From: Mariprofundus sp. KV
GTDB taxonomy: Bacteria > Pseudomonadota > Zetaproteobacteria > Mariprofundales > Mariprofundaceae
DNA: 64,000 nt
Assembly (NCBI RefSeq): GCF_013387475.1
Contig: NZ_VWNB01000001.1
Location: forward strand, 90,559 to 154,558
Reading direction: 5' to 3'
The position numbers and the translations under genes were made by a program. The notes beneath the pieces are model-generated. The model was given only the letters and a program-made list of their open reading frames with translations, searched no databases and had not been told where the DNA came from. Positions 436-43,437 of the stretch are shown here, piece after piece (the first letter of the stretch is position 1; every line of letters begins with the position of its first letter).

Positions 436-536
436 GACATACTCCATATATCTTTTTCAGATGATGAAAACTTGACACTTTGCCATTTTGCACCATTATT
501 CGCCGCGCTTTTTTTGGTGCAAGGAGAGGGGTCCCA

Positions 537-713
537 ATGAGTAGTGTCGCAATTAAATCAACTGAAGAGATCGTTTCATGTTCAGACAACGGTCAGCACC
601 CTCTGATCTACATCAGCCTGAAACCGGGGCATGGCCAGTGCCAATACTGCGGTCAGAAGTTCATCCGCACGACAACAACCGACTCCGCCAGCACCGAAAA
701 AAAAGCAGCCTGA
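537..713 (+). CDS. Small CHCC-type zinc-finger protein
   Basis: A 58-residue protein carrying the zf-CHCC pattern: Cys15, His32, Cys35 and Cys38, with the spacing C-x16-H-x2-C-x2-C. This family is related to the NDUFS6 subunit of complex I, but free-standing bacterial members have no firmly assigned role. The ATG follows an AGGAG sequence about 10 bases upstream. An in-frame start at 480 has no ribosome binding site. The C-terminal tail is Thr/Ser/Lys rich and looks disordered. The gene stands alone, converging on rlmB with a 13-bp gap. Confidence 0.8.
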   Translation: MSSVAIKSTEEIVSCSDNGQHPLIYISLKPGHGQCQYCGQKFIRTTTTDSASTEKKAA

Positions 714-726
714 AACAGCTTCCGGC

Positions 727-2431: not shown

Positions 2432-2589
2432 GGGCAAACCCTTCGCAACCAGACCTGCAAATGCAAGCAAAAGCACAGAATCGATGAATTAACAATAGGC
2501 ATAATATTTATGCTCATGTATAACTCGTAACTCGCGATAGAGTAGAAGCTCAGTATCAACTCTTTTCCCTGCCGCCAGGAGGCCCTGCA

Positions 2590-3849: not shown

Positions 3850-3899
3850 TCAGAGCTTCTTTCTCAATCTCATATTGGCGAGAAAATGACACATGCAGA

Positions 3900-4574
3900 T
3901 TAAAACCAGCCCTTCTCTTTGAAGGAGAACACCTCTCTGCCAGCGATGAGAAAATGGTCGAGGAGTTTAATATCCAGTGCGGCGCACGCTTCTGATAACC
4001 GTTTGGTCAACTCGATATCTTCGCGGCTGGCATGCGTGGTGCCACCGGGATGGTTATGGAAGAGGATCAGCCCTTTGGCATCGAGCTCCAGCGCCCGTTT
4101 CATCAGATTGCGAGGAAATACTGCGGTGCGATCCACGGTGCCTTCAAAGAGTACCTGTGTGGCGATATGGCGGTGCTGCTGATCGGTGAAGATGGCGCCG
4201 AAACACTCCATGCCACGCCCCTGCACAAGAATACGCAGATGATCTTTTGCCCGTTCAGGGCGGTCGAACACCTTTTTGCCCGGCAGATCAGAGGCGAGAT
4301 AGCGTAGCTCTGCCTGACGGATCAGCATCAGAAACAGTGCCCCCTTCTCACCCATGCCGGAGACCTGCGCCAGCTCGGCTACAGAAGCATCGAACACACC
4401 GGCCAGCGTGCCGAAAATATCCAGCAGCCGCTTGGCAATCGGTTTCACATCAACACGCGGAATAGCGTAGGTGAGCAGCAGCTCAAGCACCTCATAGTCA
4501 TGAAAACCGTCAAAGCCATGGGCTGCAAAACGCGCTCTTAAACGTTGGCGATGGCCTCTGATCGTTGCGTCCAT
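3900..4574 (-). CDS. radC: RadC-family JAB/MPN-domain protein
   Basis: A 224-residue protein of standard RadC length. An N-terminal helix-hairpin-helix-like region (ELLLTYAIPRVDVKPIAKRLL, then VSGMGEKGA) precedes a JAB domain. The JAMM zinc motif is FHNHPGG around residue 171, followed by SREDIELTKRL. Despite the name, a DNA-repair role for RadC is doubtful; the biochemical function is unknown. The start is MDATIRGHRQRLR; an in-frame ATG 27 bases upstream is possible. Its 5' end faces the glutamate dehydrogenase gene across about 80 bp, so the two promoters must share this space. Confidence 0.9.
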   Translation of the reverse strand: MDATIRGHRQRLRARFAAHGFDGFHDYEVLELLLTYAIPRVDVKPIAKRLLDIFGTLAGVFDASVAELAQVSGMGEKGALFLMLIRQAELRYLASDLPGKKVFDRPERAKDHLRILVQGRGMECFGAIFTDQQHRHIATQVLFEGTVDRTAVFPRNLMKRALELDAKGLILFHNHPGGTTHASREDIELTKRLSEACAALDIKLLDHFLIAGREVFSFKEKGWF

Positions 4575-4654
4575 ACTCTTATCAAAGCCGATCACCATCA
4601 ACGCGTCAAACAGAGGCGATTGCCCTCCCTCCCGCCAGCACCTATGCTGTGACC

Positions 4655-7600
4655 ATGCGACAGCTTCGCTCCCAGCTCATCGACCTGCTTGATCAGGCGC
4701 GCCAGCAGCACCGTATAGAGATCGTTCCAAAACGGCTTCTGGCTGTGCTGGTTAAGGATTTCCTCGCCCTGCTTCCCAAGGGTAAAAGCAAACGGGTGGC
4801 GCTCTCAGCACGCACCCTCACCCACGGCAATCTTCACCGCCATATATTCACCATCCGCTGCCCTGATCAGGCCTTCTACCTTGATGCCATCAAAGGGTAT
4901 CTGCTCAAGTGCGACATCCAGCCTATAGGCCAGCAGACCATGGTTGCAAAAATGGAGTGTGATGATGAGTTCTGCTCCCTTGAACTGCGCAAACCGGACG
5001 CTCGGGATGAGGCGAACTTTATGTTTATCGCCCTGCACATCTCAGCCACGATCACGCCCGATATAGAGCCGTTGAAAAAAGATATTCAGGCGATTCTGCA
5101 GGCAGTTGATCTCTCGGTTCGTGATTACCAACCCATGCAGAAACTGGTGGCCCGGGCTGTAGCCGGATTGATGGCAGACGATAGTGACGGCGCATCGCTT
5201 CTCGACTGGATGAATGACGCCCACTTCCTCTATTTCGGCATTATTCACGACAACACGCGCTTCGGCGTGGCAAAAAAGAGTCGTGTGCTTGATCGCATCG
5301 CTCCGGGACTGCTCGATCAGATCAACACTACACAACCAGCGACAGAGATAGGTCTGCGCTGGCTCAGCCTGAGTGCCTGCGCCCAGTACCTCTATAGTGC
5401 GGCCAGCGTAGAGGTGGTGCGCGCCAGCTGGAGAGGGGCTAAAGGTGAGATGCAGCAGATTATACTTATCGGCCACTTCTCCCGCAGCGCTCGCTACGCC
5501 AATGCCAGCTACCTGCCGCTTCTGGCCCGCCACTGGCGTGAACTGGCCGGTGACACACTGCTGCAGCACTCGGCATTTTATCGTCGCGAAATTCGCACCC
5601 TGTTTGACCGCATGCCCAAGCGTATCCTTCTGGCCAGTAAGGGCAGCGACTGGCTGGAGCCCCTTAAGGAGATCATTGATCTGGCCGGCCCGATGCAGCT
5701 GGTCGCCCGTCTGATCCCTGTACTCGAGGGCAACAGCGATATCCTGATGATTACCGTCACAGCCAAACGCTTCGGCCCAACCGTCATGCAACATATGCTG
5801 CAGGCGCTCGCCGCTGCCGGGCAGATCACCCATGGCTATGACACATTCGGTATCGGCCCCCATCGCATCATCCTTATCGGCATTGATCGCAGCTCGCCAG
5901 CCATCCAGCAGAACAACCTCGAAGAGCTTATTCGCCACTGCATTATCTTTTGGAAAGATATCGCACGCGCCGAAGTGATGCGCCATTCCGACATTTTTGA
6001 TATCCCGGCAACCCTGAATGAACTGGAACTGATTCCACCGCTCTATCAGGAACTCTTTCCACCAGCCCAGTTCACCCGTGACCTGCAGATGCGCGAACGC
6101 GTTCTGCAGAGCGGACGCACACGCGTTTATGTAACCCCGCGTGCCAAAGCGACAGGCGATGAGGTGGAGCTGCACATCTATTCACTCAAGCAACCTTCGC
6201 TGGGCACGCTTGTAGATACCATCCGCGCCTTTGGCCTGGACCCAATTCAGGAGGCGGTTGTCCCCTTTGGCAGAGATCCGGACTGCCTTGAAAACCCCGA
6301 TGGCCGCTGTGGCTGCATTCATATCAGCTCACTCACCTGCCGCGCCCCCCGCCATCTGGACAAAGAGGATGCCCAGAGGCTGCGAAGGGGTCTGGCTCAG
6401 GCGCTTAATGATGAAGCCGACCACGATCCGATCAATGCGCTACTGATTACAGCCCGACTTGAGATCGATCAAATTGCTGTAGTGATTACACTGCGCAATC
6501 ATCTGATTCAACTGATCCCCGATGCTGCAAAACTGCCGCTCTCGGATATGATTTTGCGCCACCCCGAGGTGACCGCCGCACTGCACAAACTCTTTGCAGC
6601 CCACCATCTGCCAGCCATGCCGGAGAGTTTTCTTGCCGAAGCCCGTGAGCTGTTCCACGAGGCGATGGGCAGCATCAGCAACCTCTCTGACGATCGCTGG
6701 TTCAGAGCATTGGCCGAACTTGTCGAAGCATCACTGCGCAGCAACGCCTTTATTCGCCAATTCGGTGAACCTGTCGGCATCAAGATTGACCCCGGCAAAC
6801 TGAGCTATGCGCCGGAGCCCAAGCCCTATCGGGAGATCTTTGTTCACGGCGTCCATATCGAAGGTGTCCACCTGCGTGCCGGCCCCATTGCACGTGGTGG
6901 CCTGCGCCACTCTGACCGCCCATCCGATTTCCGCACCGAGGTACTGGAGCTGATGAGCACACAGGTGGTAAAAAATGGCCAGATCGTGCCCACCGGTTCC
7001 AAAGGAGGTTTTGTTGTGCGCGGCGGCACTGGCTCCTCGTTTGTACTGGATCAGTACCGCACCTTTATTGATACCCTGCTGGCACTGACCGACAATATGG
7101 ACAGGGCAGTTACCGTTGCGGCAGAGGGGATTCGCATCGCCGCAAGTGATGCCAACGACCCCTACCTTGTGGTTGCTGCGGATAAAGGTACAGCCCGTTT
7201 TTCTGATGATGCCAATGCGCGTTCACTGCAGGCCGGTTTCTGGCTTGGTGATGCCTTTGCCAGTGGAGGCCGCTTTGGTTATGACCATAAGCAGGTAGGC
7301 ATTACTGCGCGCGGAGCCTGGGTATGTGTGGCGCACCACTTCGGCAAACTCGGCATCGATGCATACAACGATCCGATCAGCTGTGTTGGCATTGGCGATA
7401 TGGGTGGTGACGTATTTGGCAACGGCATGCTGTTAAACCCCAATCTGCGACTGATTGCCGCCTTTAATCACAGGCATATCTTCCTTGATCCTGAGCCGGA
7501 TGCGACCGGAGCATTTGCCGAGAGGCAGCGCTTGTTTGAGCAGACGGGAGGCTGGGAGAGCTACAACCAGCAGCTGATCAGTCAGGGGGGTGGCGTTTTT

Positions 7601-9226
7601 GAGCGCAGTGCCAAATCGATCCCACTGGCCAGCAATATACGCAAACAGCTGATGTGTGAGGAGACAAGCCTCTCAGGCGAAGCACTGATCAGGGCCATTC
7701 TCTCTGCACCTGTTGACCTGCTCTATAACGGCGGTATCGGCACCTATATCAAAGCGGCCTCGGAGAGCCATGCTGATGTGCGCGATCCCGGCAACAATGC
7801 GGTACGCATCGATGCCACACAACTGCGTTGCAGGGTGATCAGTGAAGGGGGCAATCTCGGGCTGACCCAGAAAGCACGCATCGAATATGCAGTCGCTGGT
7901 GGCATCATCAATACCGATGCAATGGATAATGCAGCAGGTGTGGATATGTCTGACCATGAGGTGAATCTGAAGATTCTTCTCTCCCCGCAATCAGGAAACA
8001 AAATATCCTTTGATAAGCGCAACAGTCAGCTCAAGTCGCTGACTGAAGCGGTTACTGCCGACTGTCTGAATAACAACCTGCTGCAGTCGCGTGCCATCAC
8101 GCTGGCCGAAGCGGCTGCAAGCCAGCACCCGCTTCGCCTGCGCAGGCTGCGTGACCATCTTACGCAGCAGGGCTGGCTGGGTGAAGCCGTTGCGCCGCGC
8201 ATGCAGGAGGATGAGCTGCTGCATCTTCGTCCACAGCTCTCAGTGCTGCTGGGTCAGGAGAAGAACCGCATCCATGCCCGACTCAGCGCTGAATCATTCC
8301 ATCAGCATGGTGCCTTTAACCAGCAGCTGCTCAACAGCTACTTCCCTGATGCCCTGCACAAACGCTTTGCTGCAAAATTTTCAGATCATCCTCTGGCCTC
8401 TGAGATCATTCACACCGTGGCGAGTAATCATATCGTCAACCATCTCGGCCTTGGTGCAGTTCACCATCTGGAGAGCATGGTCGATCACTCGGTGAGCCAC
8501 ATCGTTGAGGCACTGCTGATCAGTGAGGCACTTCTCGAGGTTAAACCACTTCGCGATGCGATATGGCTCAAGGTTACAGAGCCCGATCAGGCGATTGCTC
8601 TGCAGCAGCAACTGCAGGAGCAACTCTTCCACTTTGCTGAAGAGCTTCTGCGCCTCTGCCCGATTGACCGGCTTGATCAGGCGTGGCTGAAAAAACAGCG
8701 TAGTGGCCTGGCACGTTTCCGAGATAAATTGATGCTGGAGAAGAGAGCCGAACCTGATGTGGGCGGACTGGAGGCAGAGGGACTTGAGCAACTGACAGTT
8801 CTGCCTGAACTGGCTCATGCCGCCTGCGCACTGCATATCTCCTCAATGCATCAGATGCCACTAAACCGCTGCCTTGCAGCCAGCAGAGCCTGTATGCAGC
8901 TGCTGCCGATCAGAGCGATGGAGCGGCAGTTGCGTTCATCTGACTGGGGCTCTGCAGATGCCCACAGCCTGCGCCGGGAGTGGCTGCAACGGCTGGTTAT
9001 CCTGAAAGAGAAAGCGATCTGCCAACTACTGGATGCGGGTGGCAGTCGTTATGATGCAACTGCAAAGGAGAGATGGCACCAGCACTCTGCCTGGGTAAAG
9101 GTTGAGCACCTGATGCGTAGTGAGGCTAGTGATACGAACCAGCCAGCTGAACCGCGTCGCGCCGAATCAAGGCGCATGCAACTACTGCTGGCATTGACCC
9201 GGTTAGAATCTATTATCGAAAGCTGA
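4655..9226 (+). CDS. gdhB: NAD-specific glutamate dehydrogenase, large (180 kDa) class
   Basis: A protein of about 1523 residues in the large bacterial NAD-GDH family (Bac_GDH), which oxidises glutamate to 2-oxoglutarate and ammonium with NAD. The long N-terminal ACT-like regulatory region is followed by the catalytic core from about residue 720. There GPIARGGLRHSDRPSDFRTE and PTGSKGGFVV carry the conserved glycine/lysine substrate site. The dinucleotide region follows, with VGIGDMGGDVFGNGML near residue 910. Length is close to the 1500-1650 typical of the class. ATG 4655 is chosen because earlier codons overlap radC and are low-complexity; no clear ribosome binding site was found, and GTG 4649 is an alternative. 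It stands alone. Confidence 0.93.
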   Translation: MRQLRSQLIDLLDQARQQHRIEIVPKRLLAVLVKDFLALLPKGKSKRVALSARTLTHGNLHRHIFTIRCPDQAFYLDAIKGYLLKCDIQPIGQQTMVAKMECDDEFCSLELRKPDARDEANFMFIALHISATITPDIEPLKKDIQAILQAVDLSVRDYQPMQKLVARAVAGLMADDSDGASLLDWMNDAHFLYFGIIHDNTRFGVAKKSRVLDRIAPGLLDQINTTQPATEIGLRWLSLSACAQYLYSAASVEVVRASWRGAKGEMQQIILIGHFSRSARYANASYLPLLARHWRELAGDTLLQHSAFYRREIRTLFDRMPKRILLASKGSDWLEPLKEIIDLAGPMQLVARLIPVLEGNSDILMITVTAKRFGPTVMQHMLQALAAAGQITHGYDTFGIGPHRIILIGIDRSSPAIQQNNLEELIRHCIIFWKDIARAEVMRHSDIFDIPATLNELELIPPLYQELFPPAQFTRDLQMRERVLQSGRTRVYVTPRAKATGDEVELHIYSLKQPSLGTLVDTIRAFGLDPIQEAVVPFGRDPDCLENPDGRCGCIHISSLTCRAPRHLDKEDAQRLRRGLAQALNDEADHDPINALLITARLEIDQIAVVITLRNHLIQLIPDAAKLPLSDMILRHPEVTAALHKLFAAHHLPAMPESFLAEARELFHEAMGSISNLSDDRWFRALAELVEASLRSNAFIRQFGEPVGIKIDPGKLSYAPEPKPYREIFVHGVHIEGVHLRAGPIARGGLRHSDRPSDFRTEVLELMSTQVVKNGQIVPTGSKGGFVVRGGTGSSFVLDQYRTFIDTLLALTDNMDRAVTVAAEGIRIAASDANDPYLVVAADKGTARFSDDANARSLQAGFWLGDAFASGGRFGYDHKQVGITARGAWVCVAHHFGKLGIDAYNDPISCVGIGDMGGDVFGNGMLLNPNLRLIAAFNHRHIFLDPEPDATGAFAERQRLFEQTGGWESYNQQLISQGGGVFERSAKSIPLASNIRKQLMCEETSLSGEALIRAILSAPVDLLYNGGIGTYIKAASESHADVRDPGNNAVRIDATQLRCRVISEGGNLGLTQKARIEYAVAGGIINTDAMDNAAGVDMSDHEVNLKILLSPQSGNKISFDKRNSQLKSLTEAVTADCLNNNLLQSRAITLAEAAASQHPLRLRRLRDHLTQQGWLGEAVAPRMQEDELLHLRPQLSVLLGQEKNRIHARLSAESFHQHGAFNQQLLNSYFPDALHKRFAAKFSDHPLASEIIHTVASNHIVNHLGLGAVHHLESMVDHSVSHIVEALLISEALLEVKPLRDAIWLKVTEPDQAIALQQQLQEQLFHFAEELLRLCPIDRLDQAWLKKQRSGLARFRDKLMLEKRAEPDVGGLEAEGLEQLTVLPELAHAACALHISSMHQMPLNRCLAASRACMQLLPIRAMERQLRSSDWGSADAHSLRREWLQRLVILKEKAICQLLDAGGSRYDATAKERWHQHSAWVKVEHLMRSEASDTNQPAEPRRAESRRMQLLLALTRLESIIES

Positions 9227-19255: not shown

Positions 19256-19588
19256 ATGACTGAGGGTCTGTGCCTGCGCATTTATTTAACTGAATCGTCC
19301 AGAATCGATGGCAAACCGGCAACGGAAGCCATTCTTTCCCTGTGCAAAAACGCAGGACTGCGCGGTGTTTCGGTGCTGCGCGGCATTGAAGGTCTGGGTG
19401 AGCACGGCATTCGTTCCACCTCATTTCTCGATCTCTCCGCCGATCTTCCCATTCTTGTAGAAGCCATTGATACAACCGATAAAATCAATCAGGCATTAGA
19501 ACAAATGAAATCACATCTGGGACAGTGCATGGTCGCCACCTGGCCGGTAGCACTGATGCGCTATGGAGAAAATGATGGAAATGATTGA
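19256..19588 (+). CDS. DUF190 (PII-like) family protein
   Basis: A 110-residue protein matching DUF190/COG1993: the opening LRIYLTESSRIDGKPATEAILSL, then AGLRGVSVLRGIEGLGEHG, LSADLPILVEAIDT and KINQALEQMKSHL. These are PII-like ferredoxin-fold trimers, often next to the CrcB fluoride channel; here no crcB is present. AGGAGG precedes the ATG. Its end overlaps the next gene, a Crp/Fnr-type regulator, by 26 bases, so the two are coupled. This suggests a small-molecule sensing role upstream of transcription, but that is inference. Confidence 0.88.
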   Translation: MTEGLCLRIYLTESSRIDGKPATEAILSLCKNAGLRGVSVLRGIEGLGEHGIRSTSFLDLSADLPILVEAIDTTDKINQALEQMKSHLGQCMVATWPVALMRYGENDGND

Positions 19589-20264
19589 GATGTTAAGAAA
19601 GGTACCGCTATTTGCCGAGCTCGATGAGGATGAGTTGAGAGCGGTCACATCACTTGCCAACAGTCTTGATATACCCAAGAAAAACATCGTCTTTCAGGAG
19701 TTCGATCTCGGCGACTCGATGTATGTGATACTTAAAGGGGAGGTAAAAATCTCCACCTACTCTGCCGAAGGTCGTGAAGTGGTTCTGGCCCTGCTTGAGA
19801 GAGGTTCATTTTTCGGTGAACTCTCACTGCTGGATGAGGAGCCGCGATCAGCCACTGTCACCACCATGGAGGACTCCAAGTTCGCTCATATCCGCAGGCG
19901 TGACCTGACCTCTCTGCTGCTTGAGCAGCCGGCCATTACACTGAAAATCCTTAAAGAACTGGCATCACGCCTGCGCCGCACCAGCCGTGTGCTTGAGCGC
20001 ATCAGCAGCATGGATGTGCCGCATCGCCTCTACGCCTATCTGGTGGATCACTGTAAACGATTCAGTCAGCCGGATGAGGATGACTGCTACTCCACCATCC
20101 TGCCCACCCATCAACTGCTGGCCGACCAGCTCTCAACCAGCCGTGAAACCATCTCTCGTGCCATCAGTCAGCTGAAAAAAGATGGTCTGCTTGTTCAGGG
20201 CGAAGGACGCGGAAAAATGCGTGTTGATGTTGATGCACTGGAAGATCGACTGGACGATTTTTAA
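19563..20264 (+). CDS. Crp/Fnr-family transcriptional regulator
   Basis: A 233-residue regulator. The cyclic-nucleotide-binding fold spans about residues 15-130, with GDSMYVILKGEVKIS and FFGELSLLDEEPRSATV, which resembles the phosphate-binding cassette FGELAL..RSA of cAMP-binding members. The dimer helix is followed by a winged helix with LADQLSTSRETISRAISQLKKDGLL (HTH about 185-210). No Fnr N-terminal cysteine cluster is present, so it is Crp-like rather than an oxygen sensor. It could respond to the cAMP made by the cyclase at 40506, though that is speculation. Several in-frame ATGs (19563, 19572, 19575) are possible starts. Confidence 0.9.
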   Translation: MEKMMEMIEMLRKVPLFAELDEDELRAVTSLANSLDIPKKNIVFQEFDLGDSMYVILKGEVKISTYSAEGREVVLALLERGSFFGELSLLDEEPRSATVTTMEDSKFAHIRRRDLTSLLLEQPAITLKILKELASRLRRTSRVLERISSMDVPHRLYAYLVDHCKRFSQPDEDDCYSTILPTHQLLADQLSTSRETISRAISQLKKDGLLVQGEGRGKMRVDVDALEDRLDDF

Positions 20265-34503: not shown

Positions 34504-34778
34504 ATCGCATCTGTCTGCTGGCCCGCATTCGTGGTCGCGTGCAGGGCGTCTGTTTTCGCCACTACACACAACTCGAGGCCAATCGTCTTGGCCTGCACGG
34601 CTGGGTGCGCAATCTGCCTGATGGCGATGTTGAGGCCTGTATCGCCGGCCCTGAGCCTCAGATAACCCTGATGAAACAGTGGCTGCATCACGGCCCGACT
34701 CATGCCAGTGTTGAGCATGTCGAATTTTCACCATCGACACTGCCGGATAGCTGGGAGAGATTTTCCATTCGTTACTGA
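34485..34778 (+). CDS. acyP: Acylphosphatase
   Basis: A 97-residue protein of normal acylphosphatase size, which hydrolyses acyl phosphates. The phosphate-binding loop RGRVQGVCFRHYT contains the catalytic Arg25, and HGWVRNLPDGDVEA contains the catalytic Asn43. The end SWERFSIRY is also typical. The start appears to be GTG 34485, overlapping nadB by 19 bases; no strong ribosome binding site, so a later start is possible. It is in the nadB-acyP-hemH run. Confidence 0.9.
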   Translation: MAQHPLNRICLLARIRGRVQGVCFRHYTQLEANRLGLHGWVRNLPDGDVEACIAGPEPQITLMKQWLHHGPTHASVEHVEFSPSTLPDSWERFSIRY

Positions 34779-34797
34779 GATGAGAAGGGATGCATTC

Positions 34798-35808
34798 ATG
34801 CCATACAGTGCCAAACAGACATTTGAACATAAACAGGAGCCTGCCGTCGGTATCCTGCTGACTAACCTCGGCACACCTGATGCACCCACCACGGCGGCGG
34901 TGCGCACCTATCTCAGGGAGTTCCTCTGGGATCCGCGTGTGGTTGAGCAGCCGCGCTGGCTCTGGTGGCTGATTCTTAACGGCATCATTCTTAATACCCG
35001 CCCGGCCAGATCGGCAGCACTCTACGCCAAGGTGTGGAGTGCTGAGGGCTCACCTCTGCTCGCCACTGGTAAACGCCAGCGTGAAAAACTGGAGGCCGCA
35101 CTGCGCGAGCACATTGCGCAGCCGCTGCATGTTGAGCTGGCCATGCGCTACGGCAACCCATCGATCCGCAGTGGTCTTGAAGCGCTGCGAGAGAAGAACT
35201 GCAGTAGCATCGTTGTGCTGCCACTCTATCCGCAATACTCCGCCACCACCTCAGGCTCCACCTTTGATGCCGTAGCTGAAGCCCTAAAAACGTGGCGGCG
35301 TGTACCGCAGTTGCAATTTATCGATGCCTACCACGACTATCCTGCCTATATCGAAGCGCTGGCAGAGAGTGTTCGCAACCACTGGCAGGAGCACGGGCAG
35401 GCAGAGCGACTACTGCTCTCCTACCACGGCATTCCCGATTCCTATTTTAACAACGGTGACCCCTATCCCTGCCACTGCCGCAAAACCACCCGCCTGCTGC
35501 GCGAGGCGCTGGGGCTGGATGAGACCCAACTGCAGATGTCATTTCAATCCCGCTTCGGCAAAGAGCCGTGGGTTCAGCCCTACACCGATGAAACACTGGA
35601 GCGCTGGGGCAAGGAGGGTGTTGAGAGTGTGGATGTGATCTGTCCCGGTTTCCCGGCAGATTGCCTGGAGACCATTGAGGAGATCGGCATGGAGAACCGA
35701 GATATCTTCCTTGAGGCCGGTGGCAAAACCTACCGTTATATCCCGGCACTCAATGATGGAGAGAGCCACATTCAAGCCTTGGCTGAGATCATTTTGACAC
35801 AAATCTAA
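34798..35808 (+). CDS. hemH: Ferrochelatase
   Basis: A 336-residue enzyme inserting ferrous iron into protoporphyrin IX. VGILLTNLGTPDAPTTAAVR opens the domain. PLYPQYSATTSGS is intact, SYHGIPDSYFNNGDPYPCHC holds the metal-binding histidine, and CPGFPADCLETIEEIGMENR carries the glutamate. The two cysteines YPCHC and the C-terminal region resemble E. coli-type enzymes. The ATG follows AAGGG by eight bases. An earlier in-frame ATG nine codons upstream is less likely. Confidence 0.95.
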   Translation: MPYSAKQTFEHKQEPAVGILLTNLGTPDAPTTAAVRTYLREFLWDPRVVEQPRWLWWLILNGIILNTRPARSAALYAKVWSAEGSPLLATGKRQREKLEAALREHIAQPLHVELAMRYGNPSIRSGLEALREKNCSSIVVLPLYPQYSATTSGSTFDAVAEALKTWRRVPQLQFIDAYHDYPAYIEALAESVRNHWQEHGQAERLLLSYHGIPDSYFNNGDPYPCHCRKTTRLLREALGLDETQLQMSFQSRFGKEPWVQPYTDETLERWGKEGVESVDVICPGFPADCLETIEEIGMENRDIFLEAGGKTYRYIPALNDGESHIQALAEIILTQI

Positions 35809-35898: not shown

Positions 35899-37056
35899 CT
35901 ACTGATGCTCTTCCTGAATCTCCAGAATTTCATCCAGGCAGTTAAAAAATGCATCTACAACCTGCGGGTCAAAATGCGCCCCTTTTTCATTCTTTATAAG
36001 CGAAAGTGCATCCTGTAATGGCCAGGCTTTTTTGTACGGCCTCTCATTGACCAGAGCATCGAACACATCGGCAACAGCAACGATCCTAGCCGCCAAGGGG
36101 ATCTCCTCGCCCTTCAATCCATCCGGGTAACCGTTGCCATTCCACTTTTCATGGTGGTGCAATGCAATTTCTTCACTCAGTTTAAGAATCTCAGTATCTG
36201 AACCTCTGAGTATTGAGGCGCCTTTGTTCGAGTGGGATTTCATTTTCACCCACTCATCAGCATCCAGCTTGCCGTTTTTACCTAAAATAGCATCAGGAAT
36301 GCCCACCTTGCCAACATCATGCATAGCGGAAGCATGGAATAGACCCTCCTGCTCTTCTATCGAAAGCCCAAGCTCCCTGCCAAGTATTTTTGAACTGTAT
36401 CTAATTCTTTGAATGTGCTTGAAGGTGTCCTCATCCTTGTACTCTGCAGCATACCCAAGACGTGCAAGCGTCTCTAAATATGCTTTCCTCAGGGACTCCT
36501 GTAGTCTCATATTGATGATGCTAACAGCCGACATCACTGCAAAACTTTTCGCTATCCCCAGATTTAGCTCATGAACAAGCTCCTCTTTTGGATTGATGAT
36601 TTCCAAAGCGCCGATAATTCCTTCGGTCGGATGTCGCAAAGGAATCGCTAATATTGATTCCGTCTTAAAGCCGCTTAATTTGTCTATGGAACCATCAAAT
36701 TTATATGGCACAGATTCTGACAGATGATAGGGGTCATCAACCTGAAGCAGTTCACCGGCCATAGCTACGTGGCCAGCAATACTACTGTGATTTAGAGGTA
36801 TTCTCAGATCATCCCCATTTTGATCCCTTGATATGGAACTAGTGTCGATTTCATCATTTTGAAACGACAAAAAGTCAAGGAAATCACCGTCTACAAAAGC
36901 GATACTGCCAGCAGGGGCCTCAAAAATCCGCCGGGCATGCTTAAGGACCTTCTCTACAAATATGGTTTGATCCTTCTCCATCTCAATGTCTACTGCTGCA
37001 TCAAAAATAAACATCAGTGTCTGCTTAGCTTCTTTACTTGAAATCTCTTCAAACAC
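35899..37056 (-). CDS. GAF-HD-GYP putative c-di-GMP phosphodiesterase
   Basis: A 385-residue soluble protein. A GAF domain spans about residues 20-180 (DGDFLDFLSF, SSIAGHVAMAGELLQVDD, ILAIPLRHPTEGIIGALEIIN). The C-terminal HD-GYP has HDVGK, HHHEKWNGNGYPDGLKGEEIPL and RIVAVADVFDAL, with all metal ligands intact. The start is GTG, preceded by AGGAGG five bases upstream. It would degrade c-di-GMP in response to a ligand at the GAF domain. It is divergent from the FecR/Slam/cyclase cluster, with an operator-like palindrome in the 201-bp gap. Base composition is more A+T-rich than hemH. Confidence 0.9.
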   Translation of the reverse strand: MFEEISSKEAKQTLMFIFDAAVDIEMEKDQTIFVEKVLKHARRIFEAPAGSIAFVDGDFLDFLSFQNDEIDTSSISRDQNGDDLRIPLNHSSIAGHVAMAGELLQVDDPYHLSESVPYKFDGSIDKLSGFKTESILAIPLRHPTEGIIGALEIINPKEELVHELNLGIAKSFAVMSAVSIINMRLQESLRKAYLETLARLGYAAEYKDEDTFKHIQRIRYSSKILGRELGLSIEEQEGLFHASAMHDVGKVGIPDAILGKNGKLDADEWVKMKSHSNKGASILRGSDTEILKLSEEIALHHHEKWNGNGYPDGLKGEEIPLAARIVAVADVFDALVNERPYKKAWPLQDALSLIKNEKGAHFDPQVVDAFFNCLDEILEIQEEHQ

Positions 37057-37153
37057 AGCAACCTCCTGAAAATCCCACAAACGACTGTATACCCATAAGC
37101 TATAGCACACACAGAAAGTAAAGTATATGCTTCCTAGCAAAGATGAATGTTGC

Positions 37154-37168
37154 TGACCAGCGTGGTCA
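37154..37168. promoter_or_regulatory. Perfect palindrome TGACCAGCGTGGTCA, candidate operator
   Basis: Two six-base arms (TGACCA and TGGTCA) flank GCG. It lies 98 bases upstream of the HD-GYP GTG and about 90 bases before the FecR gene start. It overlaps a weak -35-like TGGTCA for a possible -10 TATAAC at 37186-37191 on the plus strand, 17 bases away. A divergently acting regulator is plausible; the protein is unknown. Confidence 0.45.
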
Positions 37169-37257
37169 ATCTGGCAATTACAGTCTATAACTTATCCAGT
37201 ATGGGTGAACTATTTTTAAGTCTTCGTGATAGTTGTTGCACATAGGAGGAATGGTTC

Positions 37258-39012
37258 TTGATCTCTTTTCGTAGGCATTCGAATCACAAAATCATCCTGC
37301 CTCTGGTCATGGTGGCTACTGTCTCTTGCTGCAATGCTGTTCTGGCTGCCGATCAAATTACATTCGTAGATGATGGGCAACTTGCCCAAATGAATTCTGT
37401 AGGAGCATTTTCTGCAACCATCAATAAGGTGAATCACCTAAAAAAAGGTGCAGCCAATCCCATCGACGCAAAGATCGGCAGTGGCGTTGAGATTAAGGAT
37501 CTTGTAACAACGCTGGAAAGGTCTCGAGCTCAAGTAACTTTCGTGGATAAAACGGAACTTCGAATAGCCTCCTCATCACAGGTTGAAATTACAAAGTTCA
37601 TGTTCGACAACAGCAAATTGAAAGATGGATCTTTAAAGATACTCCGGGGCACGCTTCGCGCCATCGTTCATCATGATATTTCCGAAAACCCCCATTTCGA
37701 AGTTGTCACCCCCACTGCTGTTGCAGCAGCCCGTGGCACCGATTTCTTCACGATCGTCAAAGGTCTTTCAACCCGATTTGTCTGCCATGACGGCATGGTG
37801 GAGATCAGGAACATCAACGCAGGCGTGGCCGGAACAGAGATGTGCGCAGCGGGGCAAACTGTTGATGTCACAGAGGGGACCCCACCCTCCACCCCGACAG
37901 CAACAGATCCCGAAGTCCTTGAACAACTGCTGGAGGCCACAGAGATGACACCTGCCGCCCCTATAGAGTCGGCGCCTGCACAGGGTACTGGAGCGGTGGA
38001 GGTCGCAGCTGCAGAGGGAGCCACCATAAGCGCTACCACGACAGCTCTGGGTGTAGCCGCCCTTGGCGCAGTGGCTGTTGGCGCCGTCGCTTCCAGCAAC
38101 ACCCCAGCCGGAGCCATTCCTGCCCCTACTGGCACTGTTACATTGGAAGACTCTGTTTATGTCATGCAGCAGTGGAATGTTGCTGCCTCTCCCCTGGGCG
38201 CGGCAAGTGGCCCGGATGCCAATCATGTTGTGACTGTTACTCGCGATGCTGGCGGCAACATCACCAGCGTTACCATCGCTGGCACCCATAACGTTCCCGG
38301 CGGCACCAACAACGGTCCTTTCAGCTACACATTCAATACACCGGTCGCGGCCAATGAACTTGCTCTAGGCGGCGCCGCCACAGATACCCCCGCCGCTCTA
38401 GGTGCAGGCCCCAACTCTGTTATTCTAAATCAGATTGAGGGGCTACCGATCGTAGCGTATCAATATGTATCTCTATTCCACTGGGGGGTGCAACTCAATC
38501 TGGATGACTGGCTCGCCGGCTCCGGTGTCACTGGCACACTAACACCGCTAGCATCGATCCCAGCCGCTGGTACCGGCACCTATACCGGTGTAGCTCAGGG
38601 CTGGATCTATTCAACTGCCGCTCTGATTGATCATGACTTCCGCTTCAACTCTACCTTGAATGTGACAGCCGATTTCGGCACAAATCAGATCACCAACTTT
38701 GCAACCACAGGCACCATCACCAACGCCAATCTTGGTGGTGGACTCTATGGCGCCAATGTGGCCAATCCTAACTATGACCTGAATATGGTGCCTGCAGCCC
38801 CGGGAACAATTACCGGCAACACCTTCACTGTTGGTGTTGTCAATGTTGGTAGTGGTTTTACCGGAACAGCAAATGGTGGCTTCTTCGGCCCTGCCACCAA
38901 AGCACCTGCGACAGGCGGTGCCAATGTTCCTGCCAATATCGGAGGTGCATTTACCGCATCACAAGCCACTGGCCCAGTTGGCCGAATGCATGGCGTGTTT
39001 GTTGGCCAATAA
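37258..39012 (+). CDS. Secreted FecR-domain protein with Slam-cargo-like beta domain
   Basis: A 584-residue exported protein. A Sec signal peptide (residues 1-30, cleavage near VLA-AD) has no good lipobox, although Cys24 and Cys25 occur inside it. A FecR domain spans about 70-165, followed by an acidic Pro/Thr linker. An Ala/Gly-rich hydrophobic segment lies at about 255-285. The C-terminal beta-rich half (about 290-584) is Gly/Thr/Asn rich and ends with GGFFGP (about 540) then IGGAF (about 561). That pattern resembles the TbpB/hemophilin barrel recognised by Slam translocators. The TTG start has AGGAGG eight bases ahead. It lies directly upstream of the Slam-like gene, hence a likely cargo (inference). 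Confidence 0.72.
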   Translation: MISFRRHSNHKIILPLVMVATVSCCNAVLAADQITFVDDGQLAQMNSVGAFSATINKVNHLKKGAANPIDAKIGSGVEIKDLVTTLERSRAQVTFVDKTELRIASSSQVEITKFMFDNSKLKDGSLKILRGTLRAIVHHDISENPHFEVVTPTAVAAARGTDFFTIVKGLSTRFVCHDGMVEIRNINAGVAGTEMCAAGQTVDVTEGTPPSTPTATDPEVLEQLLEATEMTPAAPIESAPAQGTGAVEVAAAEGATISATTTALGVAALGAVAVGAVASSNTPAGAIPAPTGTVTLEDSVYVMQQWNVAASPLGAASGPDANHVVTVTRDAGGNITSVTIAGTHNVPGGTNNGPFSYTFNTPVAANELALGGAATDTPAALGAGPNSVILNQIEGLPIVAYQYVSLFHWGVQLNLDDWLAGSGVTGTLTPLASIPAAGTGTYTGVAQGWIYSTAALIDHDFRFNSTLNVTADFGTNQITNFATTGTITNANLGGGLYGANVANPNYDLNMVPAAPGTITGNTFTVGVVNVGSGFTGTANGGFFGPATKAPATGGANVPANIGGAFTASQATGPVGRMHGVFVGQ

Positions 39013-39051
39013 ACCTAAGTGGAGCTGAGGGGCGAACTTTCAAGGGCATCG

Positions 39052-40392
39052 ATGCTTTTTCGGTTAGCGGCGATCCTTGGCCTCTTACTCACCTCTTTCA
39101 CCACTGTCGCCGAGACTACCGGTGCAAACACACTACCTGTAGTCGCATCATCAGAAAACACTCAGGCAACTCCCGAGGAACTAGCACAGGTAGCGACACA
39201 ACTGCTGATTGAGAGAAAACTGGACATGGCTGCTCTGATCGTGGCAGAGCTACTGAAACAACCTGCACCACCGATGCAGGCTCTGTTTGTTGCGGGCAAA
39301 CTGGCTGAATTGCGCAGCGACTGGAATAGCGTAATCCTCTTTTACCGGGCAATGCTTGAGCGTGACCCCTCGGTTTTACGTATACGCCTTGATCTAGCTC
39401 GCGCCCTGCTCATGAACGGCGATACCGAAGCCGCGCAGCACCATTTTCAACGGGTACTGGGTGAGCCCGGACTTCCGGAGAGTGTGCGTGCCAATGTATT
39501 GTTGTTCCTCGATCAGATCGACAGACTGACCTTCAGCCAGACCCTCTCGTTTGAGGTTCTTGGAGACAACAACATCAATCAGGCCACCGCCAGTGAGGTA
39601 GTGATCATCGGTGGCCGTCGTTTTATCCTTAGCCCAACTGCACGCAAGAGAAGCGGCAAAGGCCTCGGCCTTAACTGGCAAGGGCAGTATCGCTTTGGCG
39701 ATGCACGCCAGTTCAGCCTGCGAGCCGTTCTCCAGCATCAAAACTACCCCTCGGCTAATCAGTACAACCTGACCTATCTAATGGCTTTCGCCGGCTGGAC
39801 AAAGCAGTGGAGTCCAGCGCATTCGCTCTCTTTCGAAGCCGGCGGACACGCCTCCTTTTATGGCGGACACAACCTGTTTGACGGAGCGGCATTCCGCATA
39901 TCAGATATTTATCGCACAACATCAGGTTGGACATTCAACCCGGCACTGGAGAGCAAGCAGTTGCGCTATCCTGACTATCCGCTTCGTAACGGCTGGCAAC
40001 AGTGGCTCACAGTTGACATGACCAAAGCAATGCCCAGCGGCCTGGTCTGGAGCACCGGCGCAAGTATCGGACGCAACAAGACTCACGATGAAATTTATAA
40101 CTTCATCTCATCTGGGGCCAAGCTGGGGTTATCTCTGGAGCTACCCTTACGGGTAACAGCATCAGTGATGCTGAATTATCTGGAGACCCGCTATGCGGGC
40201 AGAGACCCGTTCTTCGCAGAGCGCCGAAGGGAGAAAAAGCAGTCAGTAGAAGTCGGCCTGATCCCGCTGACACTGAACATGAAGGGGTTTGCACCACGCA
40301 TTGTCTTTGGTCATATTAAGAACTGGTCAAATATCGATCTGTATCAGTTTCAGAGAACATATGGCAAGCTTGCTTTTGTACGCGATTTTTAA
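39052..40392 (+). CDS. Slam/DUF560-family outer-membrane translocator-like protein
   Basis: A 446-residue outer-membrane protein. After a signal peptide (about 1-20, ending TVAE), residues about 35-160 form TPR-like helices (AALIVAELLK..QALFVAGKLAEL..VILFYRAMLERDPSVLRIRLDLARALLMNGDTEAA). The rest is a beta-barrel that opens with LSFEVLGDNNINQAT, the typical first-strand motif of DUF560, and ends in phenylalanine (KLAFVRDF) as Bam-inserted barrels do. Slam proteins export surface lipoproteins or soluble cargo across the outer membrane (type XI secretion). ATG 39052 has AAGG seven bases upstream. It follows the FecR cargo candidate by 39 bp. Confidence 0.78.
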   Translation: MLFRLAAILGLLLTSFTTVAETTGANTLPVVASSENTQATPEELAQVATQLLIERKLDMAALIVAELLKQPAPPMQALFVAGKLAELRSDWNSVILFYRAMLERDPSVLRIRLDLARALLMNGDTEAAQHHFQRVLGEPGLPESVRANVLLFLDQIDRLTFSQTLSFEVLGDNNINQATASEVVIIGGRRFILSPTARKRSGKGLGLNWQGQYRFGDARQFSLRAVLQHQNYPSANQYNLTYLMAFAGWTKQWSPAHSLSFEAGGHASFYGGHNLFDGAAFRISDIYRTTSGWTFNPALESKQLRYPDYPLRNGWQQWLTVDMTKAMPSGLVWSTGASIGRNKTHDEIYNFISSGAKLGLSLELPLRVTASVMLNYLETRYAGRDPFFAERRREKKQSVEVGLIPLTLNMKGFAPRIVFGHIKNWSNIDLYQFQRTYGKLAFVRDF

Positions 40393-40505
40393 TGCGTCAA
40401 GCAATAAACGGACGAAGCTTGTCCGCTCCTGAGGGATATCGGCATGACCATAAACAAATGCGATGACAGCTTCTGATCTGCCCGCAATGAGCATGAGACT
40501 ACGGT

Positions 40506-42548
40506 ATGCGCGTCGTTAAACATAAAGGCCCCTATTTTCTACTGGCCTCACTTATAGTTGCCACGGCCATCTTTGTAACTGTCACACCGCCGATGTTTGT
40601 CGACTACCTGGAATCCAAAACTTTCGACATTCGCACGCTGCTGCGGGGTGAGCGGTCCGTCAGGCCGGATATTGTCATTGTCGCTATTGATGATAAGACA
40701 CTGGAACAGTTCGCACTGAATGTCTGGACACGTGGGTATATGGCTACACTGATCGACAAGCTCACCTCAATGCAACCAAAAGTGATCGGCATTGACTACC
40801 TCTACCAGCTTCCGGAGGTGAGCAAGGGGCTGGAGTCATTACGCGAACTTAACAGATCATACCAAAGACTGGCATCGGTGGATAAAAACTTTCTTGGCGA
40901 ACTTCAAGCTATGGAGCAAATCAACAATGTTGATGCCTCACTCATTGCTGCGGTCAACAAGGCAGGAAATGTTGTACTGGCCTTTGCCCCGCATGTATTT
41001 GAAGCCATGGCATCGATTGATAGTAAAGCGAACGTTCAGCTTCCGGGATATATGACCTGGCATGCATTCATGCTGAGCAAACCCGGGCCAGCATACAAGC
41101 CTGTGTTGGCTCAGACCGCGCTGACACCATTTGAGGGATTGGCAGAGGTGGCTGCAGCCATTGGCCATGTCTATTCGCTCTACGATCAGGATGGCGCCAT
41201 TCGCTGGGAGCCTCTTTACGTCAAAATGGGGGCTGATATTTATCCTTCTTTTGGACTGGAAATTGCAAGGAAGTTTAAAGGTCTGAGGCAGCAGGATGTG
41301 AAGGTGATCACGGGCGACCGAATCATCATGGGGGAGAAGATTGATCTGCCTACAGACATTTCCGGGCGCATTCTGATCAACTATCCTGGTAAACGCGGAA
41401 AATTCACCACCTATTCGGCCATCGATATCCTTGCAGACACTATTCCAGCCACTGAACTGCAAGGTAAAATAGTGCTGGTCGGAGCCACGGCTCTTGGCAC
41501 TGGTGATATCCATGTCACTCCTTTTACTGAACTCGCAGGTGTAGAGAAGCAAGCAACAGTGGTTGAGAATATTCTCAGCCTGAACTATCTGGTGAAAGAG
41601 GAGCTAACCACACTAATAGATATCGTCGCCATTATTTGCTTTGCCTTCATTATGGCACTTGTTGTTCCCTACTTCGGTGCATTTGCTAGCGGCCTGTTTT
41701 TCGGCTTTCTTCTTATCGTCTACCTGGGATTAACGCAGTACGCCTTTGTCGCCCATAATATCTGGGTACATGTCGTTGTACCTGCACTGACGCTAAGTAT
41801 TCTCTATACGACATTAACAACATACCGCTTTTTTACAGAAGAGCGCCTGGCCAGGCAGATTCGCAATACCTTCTCCAAATATACGACCGAAAAGATAGTC
41901 ACAGAATTAATAGATCACCCCGAGATGGCAAAACTGGGCGGCGCAAGAAAAAACATCACAGTTCTCTTTTCCGATGTACGCAGTTTCACAACATTCTCGG
42001 AGAACCATGAGCCGGAGGAGGTTGTTGAAGCCCTGAACGAATTCCTCTCTGCGATGACTGAGGTGATCATGGCATGGGATGGAACTCTGGATAAGTTTGT
42101 TGGCGATGAGATTATGGCTTTCTGGGGGGCTCCTGTAGCGCAGAAAAATCACGCTGAACTGGCCGTGGGATGTGCTCTGGCGATGATGCGGCGACTGCAT
42201 GAGTTGCAAATAAAGTGGCGCACGGAGGGGCGAGCTGTACTCGGCATCGGAATCGGCATCAATACAGGTGAAATGGTTGTCGGCAACATTGGGTCTGAAA
42301 AGATGAAAATGGACTACACCGTGATTGGTGATGCGGTAAACTTAGGAGCACGCGTTGAGGCTCTGACTCGCAACTATGATACCGACATCATCATCACTGA
42401 ATTTACACTCAACCAGATCCGGAAGCTGTTATCCAGAAGTGAAAACCCTGAAATCTCCTCTCATTTACAAGTAACTAAATTGGATGAGGTTAAAGTAAAG
42501 GGCAAAGAGAATGCTGTTGTGATCTATGCCCTCTCTGAAATTGAATAG
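40506..42548 (+). CDS. CHASE2-domain adenylate cyclase
   Basis: A 680-residue inner-membrane receptor. One N-terminal helix (about 8-28) is followed by a periplasmic CHASE2 domain (about 30-345), three membrane helices (about 365-440) and a cytosolic class III cyclase (about 482-640). Metal aspartates are Asp490 (FSDVRSF) and Asp534 (KFVGDE). Lys530 and Asp603 (DYTVIGD) are the adenine-specifying pair; Asn612 and Arg616 stabilise the transition state. All are present, so cAMP production is expected. It lies 113 bp after the Slam-like gene and probably senses something in the envelope, perhaps related to the exported FecR protein. Confidence 0.9.
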   Translation: MRVVKHKGPYFLLASLIVATAIFVTVTPPMFVDYLESKTFDIRTLLRGERSVRPDIVIVAIDDKTLEQFALNVWTRGYMATLIDKLTSMQPKVIGIDYLYQLPEVSKGLESLRELNRSYQRLASVDKNFLGELQAMEQINNVDASLIAAVNKAGNVVLAFAPHVFEAMASIDSKANVQLPGYMTWHAFMLSKPGPAYKPVLAQTALTPFEGLAEVAAAIGHVYSLYDQDGAIRWEPLYVKMGADIYPSFGLEIARKFKGLRQQDVKVITGDRIIMGEKIDLPTDISGRILINYPGKRGKFTTYSAIDILADTIPATELQGKIVLVGATALGTGDIHVTPFTELAGVEKQATVVENILSLNYLVKEELTTLIDIVAIICFAFIMALVVPYFGAFASGLFFGFLLIVYLGLTQYAFVAHNIWVHVVVPALTLSILYTTLTTYRFFTEERLARQIRNTFSKYTTEKIVTELIDHPEMAKLGGARKNITVLFSDVRSFTTFSENHEPEEVVEALNEFLSAMTEVIMAWDGTLDKFVGDEIMAFWGAPVAQKNHAELAVGCALAMMRRLHELQIKWRTEGRAVLGIGIGINTGEMVVGNIGSEKMKMDYTVIGDAVNLGARVEALTRNYDTDIIITEFTLNQIRKLLSRSENPEISSHLQVTKLDEVKVKGKENAVVIYALSEIE

Positions 42549-42600: not shown

Positions 42601-43437
42601 TTACTGATAGGCTGGATCGAGCACCTTGATGCGTGACTCTTTCTCAACGCTTTCATACCAGCGATCAAGCTGGTTTTTCTCCAGAATACTGATGATCTCG
42701 TGGCGCACCTCATCCAGTGGTTTCTGCATGGCTGCACGGCGCCCGAGCAGTTCAATCACGTGCCAGCCAAAACGGGTTTTAACCGGTTGGCTGATGCCAT
42801 TCTCCTTCAGTTCAAAAGCGACATCATCAAAGGCTTTAACCATCACACCGCGCTGAAACCAGTTGAGATCACCACCACGTGATCTGTTGCTGTCATCCAG
42901 CGACTCACTGGCAGCCAGTGCGGCGAAATCACCTTTGTTGCGCAACTTTTTAATGATGGCCAGCGCCTGCTTATGTGTAGCAACGAGAATATGGCGGGCA
43001 TGCACCTGTTCAGGCACCGCAAACTCGGCAAGGTGCTGCTTGTAGTAGGCGGTAATATCACTCTCCTGAATCTTCTCCATATGCGCCAGCTGCCACTGCC
43101 GGGCTGCCTCGATAAGAATCTGACGACTGGCATTTTCGATGCGCTGGCGTGTAGCAGGATCGAGATCAAGCCCCATCTTCCTGGCCTTCTGACTGATGGC
43201 GTGGCGACGGATCAATGAGCGCAGAATATGGGCGCGGGTGTGCACATCGTTGCGGTAGCGGTTCATCTCATCGGGCAGCAGCGCCAGCTCAAGATCGATG
43301 TCCGATTCATGGATCGTGATGCCATTCACCGTCGCCACCACAGGGCTGGGGTTGAGCGGTTCGGCAAGCGTAAGCTCATCCTGCTGCTGGCAGGCAGACA
43401 ACATCACCAACAGGGTTGCCACTAATATAACTCGCAT
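42601..43437 (-). CDS. Parvulin-type peptidyl-prolyl isomerase lipoprotein
   Basis: A 278-residue lipoprotein: lipobox MLSAC with Cys16, then a SurA-N-like helical region (DIDLELALLPDEMNRYRNDV..LIRRHAISQKARKMGLDL) and a PpiC domain (ARHILVATHKQALAIIKKL, SRGGDLNWFQRGVMVKAFDDVAFEL, ISQPVKTRFGWHVIELLG). It probably assists folding of envelope or exported proteins, in the manner of PrsA or SurA. It lies convergent to the CHASE2 cyclase and divergent from the CstA-type gene. A role for the exported FecR protein is possible but unproven. Confidence 0.88.
   Translation of the reverse strand: MRVILVATLLVMLSACQQQDELTLAEPLNPSPVVATVNGITIHESDIDLELALLPDEMNRYRNDVHTRAHILRSLIRRHAISQKARKMGLDLDPATRQRIENASRQILIEAARQWQLAHMEKIQESDITAYYKQHLAEFAVPEQVHARHILVATHKQALAIIKKLRNKGDFAALAASESLDDSNRSRGGDLNWFQRGVMVKAFDDVAFELKENGISQPVKTRFGWHVIELLGRRAAMQKPLDEVRHEIISILEKNQLDRWYESVEKESRIKVLDPAYQ

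What the first reader, a model, noticed from the sequence alone, without database searches (positions are those of the whole stretch)
37258..42548. A FecR-cargo / Slam-like exporter / CHASE2-adenylate cyclase cluster
Three plus-strand genes encode an exported FecR-domain protein with a TbpB/hemophilin-like C-terminus, a DUF560/Slam-type outer-membrane translocator, and an intact CHASE2-adenylate cyclase. An HD-GYP c-di-GMP phosphodiesterase gene is divergent. The combination suggests a surface or secreted effector with its own exporter and a cyclic-AMP (and possibly c-di-GMP) control arm. FecR domains are best known from iron-citrate sensing at the inner membrane; here one sits on an exported protein. 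Slam systems are known (type XI secretion), but a FecR-domain cargo with a cyclase partner is, as far as I know, not described as a unit.
Basis: partly seen in the sequence, partly recalled or inferred. Interest (0 to 1): 0.85.

Follow-up and report, generated by a model that had tools for sequence, protein, structure and literature searches.

The report
FecR-tagged Slam cargo in cAMP operon
Three neighbouring genes encode an exported protein (a FecR domain joined to the kind of barrel used by proteins shipped to the bacterial surface), the outer-membrane exporter of the matching type, and a membrane-bound cAMP-making sensor; this is a new variant of a known envelope-sensing gene cluster and suggests that a surface-protein exporter can be wired to cAMP signalling.

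Summary
37258-42548 (+) encodes a Sec-exported FecR protein, a PF04575 Slam/T11SS outer-membrane protein and an intact CHASE2 class-III adenylate cyclase. The FecR protein's C-terminus (residues ~424-584) is a TbpB-type cargo barrel: an orthologue passes Pfam PF01298, a profile of authentic Slam-linked cargo hits it, and predicted models match NHBA, TbpB, HpuA and fHbp. The trio is intact in all four genomes of the genus that have the Slam, at two chromosomal sites; a relative has an empty site. FecR genes lie within 3 kb of Slam-family genes in 14 of 50 Slam-bearing genomes (0.2 expected). Not new: CHASE2-cyclase + FecR + TPR clusters are published for Campylobacterota, and an outer-membrane barrel (NsrA) acts upstream of CHASE2 cyclases in Sinorhizobium. 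New, as far as the held literature shows: the outer-membrane slot is a true T11SS protein and the FecR protein is built as its cargo. Most likely it is a trans-envelope sensor: Slam handles or displays the FecR protein, and the CHASE2 cyclase reads the FecR/outer-membrane state and makes cAMP. Export and signalling are inferred. The HD-GYP gene is a frequent but optional neighbour.

The parts
35899..37056 (-). GAF + HD-GYP phosphodiesterase (ORF open to 37140; ATG 37056 is the likely start). Accessory, not obligate
   Evidence: Pfam GAF 1e-6, HD_5 9e-36; L006 orthologue starts at this ATG; GC3 0.44 against window mean 0.60
37057..37257 (.). divergent intergenic region; Shine-Dalgarno AGGAGG at 37244-37249, 8 nt before the TTG start of FecR
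   Evidence: sequence; no promoter-like sites above chance
37258..39012 (+). FecR-domain protein with C-terminal Slam-cargo barrel, 584 aa
37258..37350 (+). signal peptide, about 30-31 aa, no lipobox (orthologues SILAMPASA / AVLCLPASA)
   Evidence: sequence and alignment A1; inference, no predictor run
37501..37803 (+). FecR domain (residues 82-182)
   Evidence: PF04773 E 2.7e-13; model residues 50-110 pLDDT about 82-91
38227..38517 (+). beta-rich region before the barrel (residues about 324-420), position of the 'pedestal/handle' of T11SS cargo
   Evidence: predicted strands, low confidence; inference
38527..39009 (+). TbpB_B_D-type eight-stranded cargo barrel (residues about 424-584)
   Evidence: orthologue PF01298 30.3 bits; cargo HMM 1.3e-11; hhalign 97.8% E 1.2e-12; PDB profile hits TbpB 1e-4; Foldseek NHBA/TbpB/HpuA/fHbp
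39019..40392 (+). Slam / SlipAM (DUF560, T11SS) outer-membrane protein, 457 aa from GTG 39019 or 446 aa from the likelier ATG 39052
   Evidence: PF04575 70.3 bits; L008 orthologue starts at this ATG; groups with cargo-paired Slams, 95/90
39148..39447 (+). N-terminal Slam TPR domain (residues 44-143)
   Evidence: PF24575 E 2e-8, 35.0 against cut-off 35.2
39544..40383 (+). Slam beta-barrel (residues 176-455)
   Evidence: PF04575 positions 5-286 of 288
40506..42548 (+). CHASE2-class III adenylate cyclase, 680 aa
   Evidence: PF05226 E 6e-54, PF00211 E 1e-25; catalytic residues present
40563..41651 (+). CHASE2 extracytoplasmic sensor domain (residues 20-382)
41949..42533 (+). class III cyclase catalytic domain (residues 482-676); D490, D534 metal, K530/T605 substrate, N612/R616 transition state
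   Evidence: roles from family knowledge
34702..35808 (+). left flank, ferrochelatase hemH; directly next to the PPIC gene in G050, which lacks the block
42601..43437 (-). right flank, PpiC-type rotamase lipoprotein; not part of the unit

Best explanation
This is a trans-envelope cAMP signalling module of the 'outer-membrane TPR-barrel + FecR protein + CHASE2 adenylate cyclase' kind, in the version where the outer-membrane slot is a true Slam (type XI) translocator and the FecR protein is built as its cargo. The FecR protein is exported by Sec (inferred from the signal peptide). Its C-terminal barrel is recognised by the neighbouring Slam, which threads or displays it at the outer membrane (inferred from the cargo-type barrel and the one-to-one pairing). 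The FecR domain then reports ligand binding or export state, directly or through the Slam's periplasmic TPR arm, to the periplasmic CHASE2 domain in the inner membrane, which sets cAMP output to CRP-family regulators (inferred from gene association, FecA-FecR precedent and NsrA-to-CHASE2-cyclase precedent). Shown here: domains, intact active-site residues, cargo homology, repeated gene association, presence or absence as a block. Not shown: secretion, cAMP change, any physical contact.
For: Domains and active-site residues. Cargo barrel by five lines: curated Pfam on the orthologue, a cargo HMM trained only on PF01298 proteins next to other Slams, which hits this FecR (1.3e-11), L052b (1.3e-11) and L053 (4e-7) but not FecRs from other contexts, profile-profile comparison, profile match to TbpB chains, and models matching NHBA/TbpB/HpuA/fHbp. 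Trio kept in 4/4 Slam-bearing genomes of the genus, at two sites. One FecR, one Slam and no PF01298 domain elsewhere in the genome. FecR within 3 kb of Slam in 14/50 genomes against 0.21 expected; 10 against 0.20 without this genus. FecR-Slam pairing is spread over more than one clade of the Slam tree. CHASE2 cyclase joins Slam-FecR again in L105 and L112. FecR + TPR-barrel OMP + CHASE2 cyclase recurs in L085, L089, L091, L093, L097. 17 cNMP-binding domains in the genome. Literature: PMC9239204, PMC7529298, PMC13001267, PMC12282271.
Against: No experiment and no complex model. Most FecR-Slam pairs (8 of 14 genomes) have no CHASE2 cyclase in the fetched neighbourhood, so the cyclase is not always part of it. 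Many FecR proteins beside Slam-like OMPs have no cargo barrel (Pro-rich or TPR-type C-termini), so FecR can work with such an OMP without being cargo. There is a 114-nt gap before the cyclase gene, so co-transcription is not certain. In S. meliloti the FecR-domain protein SMc02177 was not needed for signal perception by CHASE2 cyclases (PMC5498481). Structure models are only moderate (barrel blocks mostly pLDDT 70-92) and their alignments contained cargo sequences.
Confidence: 0.6

Rival explanations
1. Secreted or surface effector with its own exporter; the cyclase only regulates when it is made. The FecR domain acts outside the cell as a binding or adhesion module, as in FecR-like surface proteins of Leptospira, and no signal runs from it to the cyclase.
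For: Known T11SS cargo are surface or secreted binding proteins with a variable N-terminal effector and a C-terminal barrel (PMC12282271). The FecR domain matches Leptospira surface adhesin/lipoprotein models Lsa33 and LipL45 below their cut-offs. Most FecR-Slam pairs lack a cyclase beside them.
Against: FecR + TPR-OMP + CHASE2 cyclase recurs in genomes where FecR has no cargo barrel and there is no PF04575 exporter, so the FecR-cyclase link does not depend on the cargo role and is probably older.
Confidence: 0.25
2. The Slam and FecR-barrel form a stable outer-membrane sensor, not an export pair: the barrel stays in or on the Slam and nothing is released. The Slam has become a receptor scaffold like NsrA.
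For: NsrA, an outer-membrane barrel, acts with CHASE2 cyclases as receptor (PMC7529298). A separate Slam-family clade pairs mostly with FecR proteins, several of them without cargo barrels.
Against: The window's Slam groups with exporters that have ordinary cargo rather than with that clade (95/90) and covers nearly the whole PF04575 model; its partner kept a cargo-type barrel.
Confidence: 0.25
3. Chance neighbourhood of three unrelated genes brought by one horizontal transfer.
For: The block is compositionally atypical (GC3 0.44 HD-GYP, 0.50 FecR, 0.52 cyclase, 0.57 Slam against 0.60 +/- 0.05) and absent from the same site in G050.
Against: Trio kept at two sites in four genomes, FecR-Slam association about 67 times expectation, cyclase joining again in L105 and L112.
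Confidence: 0.03

Closest known systems
CHASE2-adenylate cyclase / phosphodiesterase / FecR-domain outer-membrane protein / TPR-protein cluster of Campylobacterota (PMC9239204)
   Same: CHASE2 cyclase with a FecR gene and a TPR-containing protein, often a phosphodiesterase; moves horizontally
   Different: The passages read do not mention Slam/PF04575 or cargo barrels; in the window the TPR protein is a Slam and the FecR protein carries a TbpBBD barrel
Type XI secretion system (Slam/DUF560) and its TbpBBD cargo (PMC8406197, PMC12282271)
   Same: PF04575 OMP with TPR; adjacent exported protein with C-terminal TbpB-type barrel; non-lipidated cargo is also known
   Different: FecR is in none of the listed cargo architectures (the word does not occur in either main text); no cyclase partner is described; experimentally verified systems are all animal-associated cluster 1
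S. meliloti NsrA - CyaD1/CyaD2/CyaK - Clr (PMC7529298, PMC13001267)
   Same: outer-membrane barrel upstream of CHASE2 cyclases and cAMP output
   Different: the NsrA barrel portion is about residues 600-1200, so it is a larger protein; the FecR-domain protein there (SMc02177) is a Clr target not needed for perception (PMC5498481)
FecA-FecR-FecI surface signalling
   Same: FecR domain in the periplasm linked to an outer-membrane barrel
   Different: no ECF sigma factor or TonB-dependent receptor beside it; the protein has a signal peptide rather than an anti-sigma domain plus membrane anchor
BiofilmReg operon: LysM-FecR + CHASE2 histidine kinase (PMC5192318)
   Same: FecR protein next to a CHASE2 sensor
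   Different: kinase output, LysM peptidoglycan anchor, no outer-membrane translocator
Magnetospirillum mtxA locus (PMC4439547)
   Same: exported protein gene followed by a CHASE2 adenylate cyclase gene
   Different: the paper reports no FecR domain in MtxA and no cargo barrel

Membership tests
Slam / T11SS outer-membrane protein | PF04575 barrel | tested here: met
   70.3 bits against cut-off 22, model positions 5-286/288
Slam / T11SS outer-membrane protein | N-terminal Slam TPR domain (PF24575) | tested here: inconclusive
   35.0 bits against cut-off 35.2, E 2e-8
Slam / T11SS outer-membrane protein | groups with cargo-paired Slams | tested here: met
   95/90 support for the clade that holds the window's Slam and canonical cargo-paired Slams, though some forks inside it are open
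Slam / T11SS outer-membrane protein | cargo-dependent export | not testable with these tools
   needs an experiment
T11SS cargo | C-terminal TbpBBD-type eight-stranded barrel | tested here: met
   the window copy itself is not reported for PF01298, its orthologue is over the cut-off
T11SS cargo | Sec signal peptide (type I or II) | tested here: met
   by inspection of four orthologues; no signal-peptide predictor was available
T11SS cargo | gene adjacent to a Slam | tested here: met
   6 nt from the Slam ORF; 4/4 genomes
T11SS cargo | Slam-dependent surface exposure | not testable with these tools
   needs an experiment
FecR anti-sigma regulators | FecR periplasmic domain PF04773 | tested here: met
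   E 2.7e-13
FecR anti-sigma regulators | adjacent FecI-type sigma factor and FecA-type receptor | tested here: not met
   none among the six genes of the neighbourhood scanned; this is the only FecR domain in the genome
CHASE2 adenylate cyclase | CHASE2 + class III catalytic domain with complete active-site residues | tested here: met
CHASE2-AC/FecR/TPR cluster (Campylobacterota type) | cyclase + FecR + TPR protein together, phosphodiesterase common | tested here: met
   GAF-HD-GYP divergent

The most novel reading that the evidence does not exclude
A type XI secretion system used as a signalling device: loading, export or ligand binding of a FecR-tagged surface cargo on its Slam is sensed across the periplasm by a CHASE2 adenylate cyclase, so that the state of a surface-protein exporter sets cellular cAMP. 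FecR-Slam pairing is found in more than one Slam clade, so this could be a general, undescribed class of cell-surface signalling.
Probability: 0.3. Interest if true: 0.85.

Novelty: new variant of a known kind. Interest (0 to 1): 0.62.

Why it matters
The ligands and partners of CHASE2 sensor domains are mostly unknown, and most T11SS proteins outside animal-associated bacteria have no known cargo. This locus offers a compact test of both: a predicted one-to-one exporter-cargo pair whose cargo bears a FecR signalling domain and whose next gene is a CHASE2 cyclase. It also gives a new T11SS cargo architecture (FecR effector + barrel) seen in several families, and a concrete candidate for how an outer-membrane barrel could talk to an inner-membrane cyclase, a step unexplained in the Sinorhizobium NsrA system.

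Tried and rejected
Promoter and terminator scans were no better than shuffles. A first neighbourhood pass with phmmer missed the FecR partners of other Slams; profiles found them. The iterated Slam profile also picks up generic TPRs, so counts were made with Pfam cut-offs only. The TPR-barrel proteins in L085/L089/L091/L093 do not reach PF04575 and align to the Slam only weakly (hhalign 95%, E 3.5e-8); part of that is TPR, so they are not called Slams. Rejected: the idea that HD-GYP is an obligate part (absent beside L007/L008), and the idea that the FecR C-terminus is just a low-complexity tail.
Full report
OBSERVATION. Pfam confirms FecR (PF04773, residues 82-182), SlipAM/DUF560 (PF04575, 70 bits, nearly full model), and CHASE2 + Guanylate_cyc. 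The cyclase has the class III active-site residues D490, K530, D534, T605, N612 and R616 (roles from family knowledge). The FecR gene starts at TTG 37258 behind a good AGGAGG. It encodes a signal peptide without lipobox, as do its orthologues. The Slam ORF begins 6 nt after FecR; by comparison with L008 its likelier start is ATG 39052. The cyclase follows after 114 nt.

THE C-TERMINUS. The window protein shows no PF01298 match at E <= 1, but its 58%-identical orthologue in L007 scores 30.3 bits against a curated cut-off of 26. An HMM built only from PF01298 proteins that sit beside other Slams (L041, L043, L050, L054) hits the window FecR at 1.3e-11, L007 at 5e-13, L008 at 3e-9, and two FecR proteins beside Slams in unrelated families (L052b 1.3e-11, L053 4e-7). 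FecR proteins from other contexts score no better than 0.17 (E-values for a 23-sequence set). Profile-profile comparison gives 97.8% probability, E 1.2e-12. A profile of the C-terminal region finds TbpB chains in the PDB at 1e-4. The full-length model is poor overall (pLDDT 53) but has a confident FecR core and a C-terminal multi-stranded barrel. Its twenty best PDB matches are Slam-type surface proteins of Neisseria and Pasteurellaceae or chimeras of them: NHBA, TbpB, LbpB, fHbp, HpuA. A model of the C-terminal 272 residues gives the same with better scores (NHBA E 4e-7, TMt 0.69). The alignments given to the predictor included cargo sequences, so the models are supporting evidence; the Pfam result on the orthologue is independent of them.

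CONSERVATION OF THE TRIO. In the window's class (78 genomes held) the Slam is found in 4 genomes by a single-sequence search, all of one genus. All four have FecR-Slam-cyclase in the same order. In two of them (L007, L008) the trio lies at another chromosomal site, without the HD-GYP gene. At the window's site, a relative without the trio (G050) has ferrochelatase directly followed by the PpiC gene: the whole HD-GYP + trio block is missing. The block is poor in GC3. So the trio looks like an accessory unit that arrives or leaves as one piece.

ASSOCIATION BEYOND THE GENUS. In 398 genomes of the phylum, 50 carry PF04575. FecR domains (PF04773) were located in these 50. In 14 genomes a FecR domain lies within 3 kb of a Slam; chance predicts 0.21. 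Leaving out the window's genus, 10 against 0.20 (assumes random gene placement and does not correct for relatedness). On a tree of 36 Slam-family proteins, most FecR-linked ones form a separate clade (100/99 for the clade that contains eight of them and one non-linked), while the window's Slam lies among Slams with ordinary cargo (95/90). The label needs 4 changes (at least 3 forced by well-supported branches) against 11.7 in shuffles. FecR-Slam pairing therefore has more than one origin, or has been lost repeatedly. The CHASE2 cyclase joins Slam-FecR again in two other families (L105: Slam, FecR, an Ig-domain lipoprotein, cyclase; L112).

THE WIDER FAMILY. Elsewhere in the same taxonomic family, the nearest cyclase relatives (45-57% identical) in part sit beside a FecR gene and a TPR protein with a C-terminal barrel-like region that does not reach PF04575 (L085, L089, L091, L093), some with large Ig or laminin-G surface proteins. 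The window's cyclase groups with L085 (100/98), and its FecR domain scores best against these. So the window version looks like a Slam-based variant of an older TPR-barrel + FecR + cyclase module. GAF-HD-GYP genes recur next to such cyclases (L089, L093, L098, L099, L100, L105), which supports a phosphodiesterase link in general, though not an obligate one.

MECHANISM. Best reading: Sec export; barrel recognised by the adjacent Slam; FecR domain reports outer-membrane or export state; CHASE2 cyclase converts it into cAMP. Precedents are FecA-FecR contact (textbook), NsrA upstream of CHASE2 cyclases (PMC7529298, PMC13001267) and the targeting role proposed for cargo barrels (PMC12282271). The genome has 17 cNMP-binding domains, so cAMP receptors are plausible. 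None of the functional steps is shown here. The main rival is that the FecR protein is simply a surface or secreted effector and the cyclase regulates it; the second is that Slam + barrel form a fixed receptor.

WHAT IS KNOWN. The CHASE2-cyclase + phosphodiesterase + FecR + TPR cluster is described for Campylobacterota (PMC9239204), the FecR + CHASE2-kinase operon for Burkholderia (PMC5192318), and a CHASE2 cyclase beside mtxA in magnetotactic bacteria (PMC4439547). Neither T11SS survey mentions FecR or cyclases in its main text, and the latest lists about ten cargo architectures without it. Hence: new variant of a known kind, with a new T11SS cargo architecture.

Noticed in passing
L052 (G239) 1-8288: Two Slam-family genes and three FecR genes in one 8-kb stretch, including a 1152-aa FecR protein with a TbpBBD C-terminus (PF01298 21.6 bits, just under cut-off).
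   Followed up: partly
L107, L108, L109, L110: Slam-family OMP beside a FecR-like protein whose C-terminus looks like TPR plus a CsgG-like domain (VLERAKLQKL.. motif): another FecR-Slam partner type without a cargo barrel.
   Followed up: no
L089, L093, L098, L099, L100, L105: GAF-HD-GYP genes with a large insertion in the HD region recur next to CHASE2 adenylate cyclases; they may be the phosphodiesterase of this signalling family and their substrate (c-di-GMP or cAMP) is worth testing.
   Followed up: partly
L093:7894-11248: In G049 the CHASE2 cyclase reading frame is broken into two ORFs of 508 and 320 aa, while the FecR, TPR-barrel and HD-GYP genes beside it are open.
   Followed up: no
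L112, L117, L120: FecR proteins with long Gly/Pro-rich C-termini paired with a distinct Slam-family clade; in L112 with a CHASE2 cyclase.
   Followed up: no
window 19563-20264: A 233-aa protein carrying the genome's best-scoring cNMP-binding domain (CRP/FNR-like) lies about 17 kb upstream of the trio; a possible cAMP receptor, linkage unproven.
   Followed up: no
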